From the NCBI GenBank assembly GCA_019747095.1, contig JAIERG010000029.1:1-42537 (forward strand): a stretch of DNA of 42,537 nucleotides, given 5' to 3'. The DNA is from Caulobacteraceae bacterium (GTDB taxonomy: Bacteria; Pseudomonadota; Alphaproteobacteria; Caulobacterales; Caulobacteraceae). How positions within the stretch are numbered: the first letter of the stretch is position 1; each line of letters starts with the position of its first letter. The position numbers were made by a program, and so were the translations under genes. The notes beneath the pieces were generated by a model, which saw only the letters and a program-made list of their open reading frames with translations, was not told where the DNA came from and did not search any database. Shown here piece by piece: positions 36,930 through 42,537 of this stretch.

Positions 36930-39518
36930 ATGAAGTCCCGTCACCGGCCGCCCCTGACCCTGACAGACCCCGAACCAGAGGCCGCTCTCACTGCGGAAAA
37001 TGGGAGCTCGACGGATGAGCGGGTGGCTGGCGGTGACAACGGGACGAGTGCGACGCCTGTCATGGATGGCTTGCGGCCCATGTCGGAACGCCGCCGGCGT
37101 CGGCTCCAGGAACAGCAGCGCCCGGAGCCGGAGACGCCTTCGGCCAGCAAGGTGCCGGTTGCTGCAAAAGAGCCCCCAGCGGCACCACCGGTTCGGGTCC
37201 TTGAGGAAAAGGAGAGTCAGGAGATCACATTCGCGACCAGCGCCGACACTCCCCCGGCGACGCGCGAAGCAGTCTCGCCCCCGACGCCGGTCGCCGTGAG
37301 CCGAACTGCCGCACTGCCTTCGTCGAATGGAACCTATCTGATCGCCGGTGCAGCCGCCGCCCTCTGGGTGGGCGGTGTCGCATCCTGGGCCGCCTATGAG
37401 GTCGGTGCCGGTCAGGTCACGCTCGATCCCCTTCGTCTTGCACTCTACGCCCTGATCGCTTTGGCTCCTGCTGGTTTAGCCGTGATGCTGGCCCACGCTG
37501 TTCGACAGGGTGCCGGTCTGGCCGCCGAAACGCGGAGGGCCCGGGATCTTGCCGAGGCCCTGGTCGCGCCGACGGCGCTGGCCGCTCAGCAGGCCGGTGA
37601 TGTGCTGGTCACGCTGCGAAACGATATCGATCAAGCTGCGCTGGCCGCAGAGCGGGCCCGTAGTGACATGGCTTTGCTACGCGAGGCGTTGGCGCAGGAA
37701 ACCCAACGCCTGAACGACGCCGCCGAGGTTGCAGGTCGAACAGCGCGGCGACTTGTCGAGCAACTCGGCAAGGAGCGGGAGGAGATGGCGAGCCTGGGCG
37801 GTCGTCTGGACACCCAGGCCTCGGGCGTCCTCGACGCTGTGGAGAAGCAATCCCGATTGATCGTCGATGCATCGGACCTCGCGCAGACCCAGTTGCGTGA
37901 AGCCGAAGCGGCTCTTGCCGCGCGCGCCGCTGACCTGGCCGCAGCCGCGACCGAAGCACAGGACGCCGCGCGTCTGGCCGCCGATGATTTGGCCCGCCAG
38001 ACTCTTAGGCTGGAGAATGCCGGTACCGGCGTCGCCGAACAGATCCAGTCCGTTGAGGAAGGCCTAAGCCAGCAAAGGGCCGCGCTGGTGACAGCTGCCT
38101 ATGCGCTAAGGACCGATCAGGAAGACTTCTCCGCTCAGGTTGAGAGCCAGCGGGCCCAGCTCACTGAACAGCTGTCGGCCGCTCGCACTGCGGCGGCCGA
38201 CCTGGGCGATACATCGACCCGCGCCTCGGAAGGGATTCGCGATCTGGTCGAGGCGGCGGCCGATCAGTTCCGCGCGCTGGTCGACCTGTCCCAGCGCGAG
38301 GCCGATGGGTTTGACGCTGCCACCAAGCTCTCCCTCGACAAGTTCGAGGCCTTGGCGGCCGAGGCGCGCGACACACTGATCGAAGAAACCCGCCGTGCGC
38401 TCGCCATGCTTCAGGCGGCGGCTGAAGAAAGCCGTCAGACCGCCTCGGACGCGACAACCCAGGCCCAGATCCATGCCGACCGGCTTGGAGAAGCCCTGTT
38501 CGAGGCCGCGAAGAAAGCCGACGAAGCCGCCGATGCCCGGGTCGAGGGCGCGCGTCGGATCGTTCTCGAGACCACGGATCTGGTGGACGTCGCCGGGGAA
38601 CAGGCGATCCAGAAACTTGAGTCCACGCTCGAACGCATGACCCAGGCGCTTGCTGAGGTGGACGCAGCGATCGGCGATCTGGACGAACGCGCCGCCCGCT
38701 TGCCGGAGGAGGCCCGGGCCCGAGCGGAAGCTGTCCGTGTCACGGTCGAGGATGGCCTCGCTGCGCTTGCAGCCGCGTCTCGCAAGGCCGCTGAAGACAC
38801 AGAGGCCCTTGATGCCGGGTTCCAGGAACGCGTGCGTCGAAACTACGACATGCTGACCGAGGCTGTCAGGCTGATGGGCGTCGTGTCGGGCGATCCGGCT
38901 CCCATCCGGAGGCGGGAGCCGCCCGTCGAGTCAGCCTCGTCGTTGACGTCCCAGCCCCCGTCCCCCCGTGAGCCGGAACGACCGGCACAGGACCGGGAGC
39001 GCAGTTTCGGACTTCGCGGCCGCTTGCGGCTCGCCCCAACCGCCGAAGACCCTGGTACGCGGGCCAAGCCCACGGGATCGGACCGTCTGGATTGGGCCGA
39101 TCTGGTTGATGACGCAGAAGCAGAGGCCCCGCTCGAGCTCGACACACCGGTCATGCCCGACGACTCGGAGGCGCTGGCGGATCGGATCACGGCCGCGATC
39201 CGCCGTATGGGCGTGGATCCCAACGCCCTGCTTCCGCGGTCGAGGGTTGAAGAAGCCGCCGAGGCCTTTGCGAGCAGGGACCCGGACAGGGCCCGACAGA
39301 TAGTGCGTCGCGTTGCCCCCGCAGCCGTCCGCAGCGTCTCCCGGCGGGTGATCAGCGACCACCAGCTGAGGTCCGACGCCGAGCGCTTCATCCGCCAGCT
39401 GGCCAACAGGCTCAGCCAGCAAGCTGGTGAGGGCGTAAACTCCGTCATGGCCGTCCTGGCGACCGATATGGGTCGTGCATTCATGCTCCTTGACGCGGCG
39501 ATCGGCGATCTCGCCTGA
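36930..39518 (+). CDS. tipN: Polarity factor TipN homologue (membrane-anchored coiled-coil protein)
   Basis: 862 aa, close to the ~888 aa of Caulobacter crescentus TipN. The first ~130 residues are acidic and Pro-rich, with a basic SERRRRRLQEQQ patch. Two transmembrane helices follow (~135-158 and ~168-190), then ~450 residues of Ala/Glu/Gln/Arg-rich coiled coil, and a C-terminal domain (~770-862) with MGVDPNALLPRSRVEEAAEA and FIRQLANRLSQQAGEG. In Caulobacter, TipN marks the new pole, directs flagellum placement and influences ParA-driven segregation. Assignment rests on architecture, length and lineage rather than an alignment, so another large coiled-coil protein is possible. Confidence 0.72.
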   Translation: MKSRHRPPLTLTDPEPEAALTAENGSSTDERVAGGDNGTSATPVMDGLRPMSERRRRRLQEQQRPEPETPSASKVPVAAKEPPAAPPVRVLEEKESQEITFATSADTPPATREAVSPPTPVAVSRTAALPSSNGTYLIAGAAAALWVGGVASWAAYEVGAGQVTLDPLRLALYALIALAPAGLAVMLAHAVRQGAGLAAETRRARDLAEALVAPTALAAQQAGDVLVTLRNDIDQAALAAERARSDMALLREALAQETQRLNDAAEVAGRTARRLVEQLGKEREEMASLGGRLDTQASGVLDAVEKQSRLIVDASDLAQTQLREAEAALAARAADLAAAATEAQDAARLAADDLARQTLRLENAGTGVAEQIQSVEEGLSQQRAALVTAAYALRTDQEDFSAQVESQRAQLTEQLSAARTAAADLGDTSTRASEGIRDLVEAAADQFRALVDLSQREADGFDAATKLSLDKFEALAAEARDTLIEETRRALAMLQAAAEESRQTASDATTQAQIHADRLGEALFEAAKKADEAADARVEGARRIVLETTDLVDVAGEQAIQKLESTLERMTQALAEVDAAIGDLDERAARLPEEARARAEAVRVTVEDGLAALAAASRKAAEDTEALDAGFQERVRRNYDMLTEAVRLMGVVSGDPAPIRRREPPVESASSLTSQPPSPREPERPAQDRERSFGLRGRLRLAPTAEDPGTRAKPTGSDRLDWADLVDDAEAEAPLELDTPVMPDDSEALADRITAAIRRMGVDPNALLPRSRVEEAAEAFASRDPDRARQIVRRVAPAAVRSVSRRVISDHQLRSDAERFIRQLANRLSQQAGEGVNSVMAVLATDMGRAFMLLDAAIGDLA

Positions 39519-39678
39519 CAAGGGATTCGCGGGTCGATTGATCGGCTTGGCGACGGTTTCGACTTGACGGCGACGATCGATTTCCGACACGGTCCAGCCG
39601 CTGTCACGACTTTGTCATGCGCAGCCGGGGGTCACAGTATGGGCCGCCAGAACGCGTCAACGGCTCTTGCAAGGCTTC

Positions 39679-40252
39679 ATGCTCGACACTGCCGCCGAGG
39701 AAACGGCCGACCGCAGGCCCGCCATGTTGATCTGCGTGTACGACGACGCTGATCCTGCTTGGCCACTGAACGACACCGGACTTCCGACGGCGCGTATGCG
39801 GTCACTCGGCCCGGATGAACCCGATGCCCTCGCCCGTCGCATCGTCAACGAGCTGGCGGATGAGACCTGTCGCGCCGTGCTTTTGGTCGGTCGCTCTAGA
39901 AAGTCGGATCGGTTCCACGTGCAGTTGCGGGCAGAGAACCGGGCTCTCAAGGGCGGACGCAAGCTGGCTGTGACCGGTCCCGCTGTCGCCCGAGCCACAG
40001 CGCCGGCATCAGAGATGGTTCGTGCCATAAGCGACGTTGGCTTTATCGCTGAGGCCACGTCAGACTCTGAGGACGACGCCGGCTCATACCTGCTCTATCG
40101 GATACTGACCGCTCTGCCCGACAACGCGGATGCTGCTGCGATTGGTCTTTTGCGGACACCGGCCGGACTGGAACCGGAGGCCGCGAGGCGCGGGGTTGAG
40201 GCCGCAGCGACGGCGATTGCGCGCCACCTGTCACCGCTGCCGAGGTCTCGGT

Positions 40253-40260
<8 letters not shown>
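39679..40260 (+). CDS. Degenerate pyroglutamyl-peptidase I (C15)-like protein, probably catalytically inactive
   Basis: 193 aa from ATG 39679 (AAGG four bases upstream); the track's TTG start adds four residues. The fold of peptidase family C15 can be followed: VLLVGRSRKSDRFHVQLRAEN lines up without gaps with the family's VxxVG...VERVAxN block, VRAISDVGF with the helix before the nucleophile, DDAGSYLLYRIL with the AGTFVCNHLFY motif, and IGLLRTP with GFIHIP. The catalytic Glu, Cys and His positions are therefore Gln82, Leu139 and Arg159. All three are changed, so peptidase activity is not expected. It follows tipN on the same strand after 160 bases and overlaps the convergent MFS gene by eight bases. 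Confidence 0.7.

Positions 40261-42537
<2,277 letters not shown>

What the first reader, a model, noticed from the sequence alone, without database searches (positions are those of the whole stretch)
39679..40260. Pyroglutamyl-peptidase-like protein that has lost all three catalytic residues
The protein aligns without gaps to the C15 motif around the catalytic Glu and recognisably to the Cys and His motifs. In each case the key residue is substituted: Glu to Gln82, Cys to Leu139, His to Arg159. Loss of all three while the surrounding motifs and an intact frame persist argues for a retained non-enzymatic role, such as binding N-terminal pyroglutamate or a protein partner, rather than decay. Position directly after tipN on the same strand raises the possibility of a cell-polarity or envelope role. 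The family motifs were recalled from memory.
Basis: partly seen in the sequence, partly recalled or inferred. Interest (0 to 1): 0.7.

Follow-up and report, generated by a model that had tools for sequence, protein, structure and literature searches.

The report
Dead pyroglutamyl-peptidase kept by selection
In Brevundimonas bacteria a gene that descends from a peptide-trimming enzyme has had all three of its cutting residues swapped for other, now fixed residues, yet it is preserved by natural selection, so it most likely does a new, non-cutting job that nobody has described.

Summary
Confirmed, with corrections. Window 39679-40260 (+) encodes a 193-aa protein with the fold of the C15 pyroglutamyl-peptidases (PCP). 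Its model matches only PCPs at Z 18.7-21.8; the next family is at 13.4. It is not a lone mutant: 64 of 73 sampled genomes of its genus carry it. In 71 aligned orthologues the Glu position is Gln 71/71, the His position Arg 71/71, and the Cys position Gly 67 or Ala 4. In sampled alphaproteobacterial C15 enzymes those columns are Glu 38/38, His 38/38, Cys 37/38. The gene is the positional orthologue of an intact C15 in a sister genus: it faces the same MFS gene, and the tree groups them. dN/dS is about 0.12, like its neighbours, so it is not decaying. No active C15 was found in sampled genomes of the genus. Pyroglutamate-pocket loops are deleted, and an upstream block suggests its own promoter, so pyroglutamate binding and a tipN operon are unlikely. 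Best reading: a non-hydrolytic pseudopeptidase whose former active site became an arginine-rich binding site. Ligand unknown.

The parts
39679..40260 (+). pseudo-C15 gene (193 aa plus stop), C15/PCP fold without catalytic triad
39922..39924 (+). Gln82 codon, at the catalytic Glu position (Gln 71/71 in orthologues; Glu 38/38 in C15)
40081..40083 (+). Gly135 codon, at the catalytic Cys position (Gly 67, Ala 4 of 71; Cys 37/38 in C15)
40093..40095 (+).
40153..40155 (+). Arg159 codon, at the catalytic His position (Arg 71/71; His 38/38 in C15)
39892..39894 (+). Arg72 codon, near-invariant Arg directly after the Gly71 shared with C15 (Leu, Val or Gln there in C15)
39928..39936 (+). Arg84-Ala85-Glu86 codons, invariant or nearly so in orthologues; Arg84 and Glu86 not conserved in C15
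39991..39993 (+). Arg105 codon, invariant in orthologues, mostly Ala or Phe in C15
39564..39569 (+). TTGACG, conserved -35-like element upstream of the gene (TTGAC in 74 of 75 intergenic regions; shuffled mean 5.3)
39603..39617 (+). GTCA-N7-GTCA direct repeat (GTCA-N5-7-GTCA in 52 of 75; shuffled mean 0.2), possible regulator site
36930..39518 (+). upstream neighbour, tipN-like long protein (862 aa); neighbour only, not part of the finding
40253..41401 (-). convergent MFS transporter; its 3' end overlaps the gene by 8 bases; shared neighbour that shows positional orthology with active C15 genes

Best explanation
The gene encodes a pseudopeptidase: the direct, positional descendant of a working C15 pyroglutamyl-peptidase that lost its Glu/Cys/His catalytic residues, and the pyroglutamate-pocket loops, in an ancestor of Brevundimonas (and of one related genus). 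The C15 fold was kept (shown by model and fold search). The three catalytic positions were refilled with Gln, Gly/Ala and Arg and then frozen (shown). It cannot hydrolyse by the C15 mechanism (follows from the chemistry of the family). Proposed mechanism (inference): a cytosolic, non-hydrolytic binding protein whose former active-site cleft, now holding fixed Arg72, Arg159, Gln82 and probably Arg84 and Arg105, holds an anionic small molecule or an acidic peptide or protein segment. It is expressed from its own promoter rather than as part of a tipN operon (inference from conserved upstream DNA). As no active C15 was found in the sampled genomes of the genus, it is not a regulatory subunit of an active paralogue. 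The confidence given is for the pseudopeptidase reading; the anionic-ligand step on its own is about 0.35.
For: Profile homology only to C15; profile finds active C15 at 2.3e-18. Fold: Z 18.7-21.8 to PCP entries against 13.4 for the next family. Orthologues in 34 of 37 and 64 of 73 genomes of the genus. Gln82 71/71, Arg159 71/71, Gly/Ala135 71/71, with synonymous codon changes at Arg159, Arg84 and Arg105. Active C15 in sister genus g16 has E/C/H and faces the same MFS gene. Tree: Brevundimonas plus g21 100/97, with g16 the next branch 99/96. g21 has Lys/Leu/Gln at the three positions. Median dN/dS 0.116 against 0.087 for tipN and 0.096 for MFS in close genome pairs. No PF01470 hit in sampled genomes of the genus. 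Upstream conservation.
Against: No ligand, partner or phenotype is known. The arginine cluster is placed by alignment, not by measured coordinates. Nine of 73 genomes lack the gene, so it is dispensable in some lineages. A different chemistry in the same cleft is not excluded. The register at the Cys position is locally ambiguous, although Gly135 is favoured by all alignments here.
Confidence: 0.82

Rival explanations
1. Neo-enzyme: the cleft has been rebuilt for a different reaction with the new invariant polar residues (Gln82, Arg84, Glu86, Arg105, Asp133, Arg159, perhaps Cys19), so the protein is an enzyme but not a peptidase.
For: Many invariant polar or charged residues specific to the family; the C15 fold resembles nucleoside phosphorylases and nucleosidases, which use arginines in the same kind of cleft (Z about 13; role of arginines from general knowledge).
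Against: No match to any known enzyme family; Cys19 sits where C15 enzymes have Thr, Cys or Ala, so it is no new nucleophile by itself.
Confidence: 0.12
2. Purely structural or protein-partner role: the conserved terminal motifs (D11-R13-P14 and L187-P188-R189) and the surface bind a partner such as the upstream polarity-type protein, and the old cleft is irrelevant. (A sub-reading of the pseudopeptidase explanation, not exclusive with it.)
For: Conserved N-terminal D-x-R-P and C-terminal LPR motifs outside the core; tipN-like gene upstream in all 74 loci.
Against: The catalytic positions are refilled by fixed residues rather than drifting; tipN occurs without this gene; conserved promoter-like block between them.
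Confidence: 0.2
3. Decaying or neutral remnant of a C15 gene.
For: Absent from 9 of 73 genomes of the genus; pocket loops deleted.
Against: dN/dS about 0.12, similar to neighbours; 71/71 fixed residues with synonymous drift; frames intact in nearly all orthologues; no recognisable remnant where the gene is absent.
Confidence: 0.02
4. Pyroglutamate-binding protein.
For: Fold ancestry; one of the two N-terminal aromatics is still aromatic (Tyr or Trp at 21 in 17 of 19 rows).
Against: The loop with the second conserved Phe and the PDNxG loop are deleted in 19/19 rows, and Arg follows Gly71.
Confidence: 0.04

Closest known systems
Peptidase family C15, pyroglutamyl-peptidase I / pyrrolidone-carboxylate peptidase (Pfam PF01470; e.g. 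Deinococcus radiodurans 5z40/5z47/5z48, Xenorhabdus 4gxh, Bacillus amyloliquefaciens 1aug)
   Same: Fold over residues 11-185 (Z up to 21.8, rmsd 2.2 A, 173 residues); homologous sequence; conserved Gly71, Asn87, Thr107, Pro109, Pro161.
   Different: Glu, Cys and His replaced by Gln, Gly and Arg; the conserved Ser, Ala, Gly and Asn around the Cys replaced; pocket loop with the second Phe, the PDNxG loop and the loop after the His deleted; new invariant Arg and Glu residues.
Active C15 of a sister genus of the same family (code g16; L031-L039, L150-L154)
   Same: Same position beside the convergent MFS gene; next branch on the tree.
   Different: Has intact E/C/H; an alcohol-dehydrogenase-like gene, not tipN, lies on its other side.
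Non-peptidase homologues (pseudoproteases) of peptidase families in general
   Same: Catalytic residues lost, fold retained, under selection.
   Different: No described C15 pseudopeptidase family was found in the papers searched; here all three positions are refilled by fixed residues.

Membership tests
Peptidase C15 (pyroglutamyl-peptidase I), as an active enzyme | C15 fold | tested here: met
   AF2 model pLDDT 86; Z 18.7-21.8 to 23 PCP entries, next family 13.4
Peptidase C15 (pyroglutamyl-peptidase I), as an active enzyme | sequence homology to PF01470 | tested here: met
   By family profile: PDB C15 E 4.4e-5, active C15 at 2.3e-18; 16 of 28 members hit PF01470 at E up to 1, best 3.4e-4. Window protein alone: no hit
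Peptidase C15 (pyroglutamyl-peptidase I), as an active enzyme | catalytic Glu/Cys/His | tested here: not met
   Gln/Gly/Arg in the window; fixed in orthologues
Peptidase C15 (pyroglutamyl-peptidase I), as an active enzyme | pyroglutamate pocket (N-terminal GFxxF loop, PDNxG loop) | tested here: not met
   Both loops deleted in 19/19 rows; that these loops form the pocket is from general knowledge
Peptidase C15 (pyroglutamyl-peptidase I), as an active enzyme | removes N-terminal pyroglutamate | not testable with these tools
   needs purified protein
Non-peptidase homologue of C15 (pseudoenzyme) | homologous to C15 but lacks catalytic residues across a conserved family | tested here: met
Non-peptidase homologue of C15 (pseudoenzyme) | under purifying selection | tested here: met
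   median dN/dS 0.116 in 24 close pairs, 0.146 in 155 pairs
tipN operon or polarity module | gene always linked to tipN and co-transcribed | tested here: inconclusive
   Linked in 74/74 loci, but own promoter-like block and tipN without the gene in several genomes; no transcript data; identity of the upstream gene with Caulobacter TipN not tested against a named sequence

The most novel reading that the evidence does not exclude
A peptidase active site was converted, at its original chromosomal place, into an arginine-rich receptor pocket for an anionic signal or metabolite, giving Brevundimonas a sensor or regulatory protein of a kind not described for the C15 fold.
Probability: 0.3. Interest if true: 0.65.

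Novelty: new variant of a known kind. Interest (0 to 1): 0.5.

Why it matters
It is an unusually clean enzyme-to-pseudoenzyme transition: an active orthologue at the matching locus in a sister genus, a homologue with different substitutes (Lys/Leu/Gln) in another genus, and dozens of genomes in which the new residues are fixed. That makes repurposing of an active site directly testable by residue swaps and by deletion in easily grown Brevundimonas. It also warns that annotation by fold alone would wrongly call this protein a peptidase.

Tried and rejected
Single-sequence searches (Pfam, NCBIfam, PDB phmmer) gave no significant hit, and the first collection scan found nothing; the family profile was needed. 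PF01470 in the window's own genome: no match, so the Pfam model misses this protein. Leu139 as the Cys position: rejected. Recent lone mutant: rejected. Decay: rejected. Regulator of an active paralogue: no active C15 found in sampled genomes of the genus. Cys19 as a relocated nucleophile: it lies in a column where active C15 enzymes have Thr, Cys or Ala, so not favoured. A bias to note: the related-loci scan used motifs that contain Gln82, and Gly135 with Leu139, so their invariance in A2 is partly selected; A1, from a protein search of whole genomes without such motifs, shows the same, and Arg159 was in neither motif. Paper searches found no C15 pseudoenzyme study and no account of the pocket residues in the held library. 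Names of genera g16 and g21 could not be obtained.

Full report
What is there. The frame at 39679-40260 (+) encodes 193 residues. The window is contig C232 of a genome whose nearest named matches are Brevundimonas. Alone, the protein hits no Pfam or NCBIfam model. A search of 61 related genomes finds it in 34, all of the same genus. A profile of 28 orthologues (A1) hits only C15 pyrrolidone-carboxylate peptidases in the PDB (11 sequences, best E 4.4e-5), and finds C15 genes of another genus of the family at E down to 2.3e-18. An AF2 model from 71 sequences has mean pLDDT 86 and pTM 0.85. Foldseek puts PCP structures first. VIA-align gives Z 18.7-21.8 for 23 PCP entries and then drops to 13.4 for nucleosidases and phosphorylases, which share the general fold. 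The C15 origin is therefore firm.

The three residues. In alignments with active enzymes the Glu, Cys and His columns fall on Gln82, Gly135 and Arg159. Among 38 sampled C15 sequences the columns are E 38, C 37, H 38; among 19 Brevundimonas rows Q 19, G 17 plus A 2, R 19. Across 71 orthologues Q82 and R159 are 71/71, position 135 is G 67 and A 4, and the arginine codons vary synonymously. The loss of all three is real and fixed in the genus. One caution: the collection scan that supplied A2 used motifs containing Q82, G135 and L139. A1, from a search without such motifs, gives the same result.

Other changes. C15-conserved features around the site are also replaced: Ser, Ala, Gly and Asn near the Cys and Phe before the His. 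The N-terminal loop with the second Phe, the PDNxG loop and the loop after the His are deleted. New invariant residues appear: Arg84, Glu86, Arg105 and Asp133, with Arg72 near-invariant. Terminal motifs DxRP and LPR are also conserved.

Ancestry and neighbourhood. In genus g16 an active C15 (E/C/H) faces the same MFS gene. In g21 a homologue with Lys/Leu/Gln at the three positions does so too. The tree joins Brevundimonas and g21 (100/97), with g16 as the next branch (99/96). This makes the window gene a positional orthologue of the enzyme. One loss before the split of Brevundimonas and g21 is the simplest reading; two separate losses are not excluded, as g21 rests on one long branch. In Brevundimonas the tipN-like gene precedes it in all 74 loci. 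In g16 tipN lies some 10-17 kb away on the other strand (compare). In other genera the slot between tipN and MFS is empty or holds an epimerase-like gene. Nine of 73 genus genomes lack the gene, with tipN and the next gene nearly abutting in those examined.

Selection. NG86 on 24 close pairs gives a median dN/dS of 0.116, against 0.087 for tipN and 0.096 for MFS; 155 pairs give 0.146. These are approximate in a GC-rich genome, but decay is excluded. No canonical C15 was found in the sampled genomes of the genus, so the protein is not a helper of an active copy.

Regulation. The spacer after tipN has a median of about 108 bp. TTGAC occurs in 74 of 75 spacers (shuffled mean 5.3) and GTCA-N5-7-GTCA in 52 (shuffled mean 0.2). 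The sequences are related, so these counts are not independent, but the block points to a promoter and a regulator site of its own.

Mechanism. Shown: fold kept, catalytic residues lost and refilled by fixed residues, purifying selection, conserved upstream DNA. Inferred: no C15 hydrolysis; binding of an anionic ligand or acidic segment in the arginine-rich former cleft. The arginine cluster rests on alignment to C15, not on measured distances. Pyroglutamate binding is unlikely with the pocket loops gone. A polarity role rests only on linkage.

Novelty. Pseudoproteases are a known kind. A fixed C15 pseudopeptidase family was not found in the papers searched, which cover only open-licence papers. 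New variant of a known kind, interest 0.5.

Noticed in passing
window:39564-39617: Conserved TTGACG and a GTCA-N7-GTCA direct repeat in the spacer after the tipN-like gene, present in most Brevundimonas loci; likely promoter and regulator site of the gene.
   Followed up: partly
L162:1944-2927 and L164:498-1478: In two other genera the slot between the tipN-like gene and the MFS gene holds an enolase-superfamily, L-Ala-D/L-Glu-epimerase-like gene (name from recall) instead of the C15 descendant.
   Followed up: no
L210 (G390:C2): A C15 homologue in another alphaproteobacterial family with Gly at the Cys position but Glu and His kept; possible single-residue inactive copy.
   Followed up: no
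L149:3780-4616: Single-genome homologue in genus g21 with Lys/Leu/Gln at the catalytic positions, at the same MFS-facing place; a possible intermediate or separate loss.
   Followed up: partly
window:40253-40260: The convergent MFS gene and the pseudo-C15 gene overlap by 8 bases at their 3' ends.
   Followed up: no
window:39709-39720 and window:40237-40245: Near-invariant DxRP (residues 11-14) and LPR (187-189) motifs at the two ends of the protein, outside the core fold; candidate interaction motifs.
   Followed up: no
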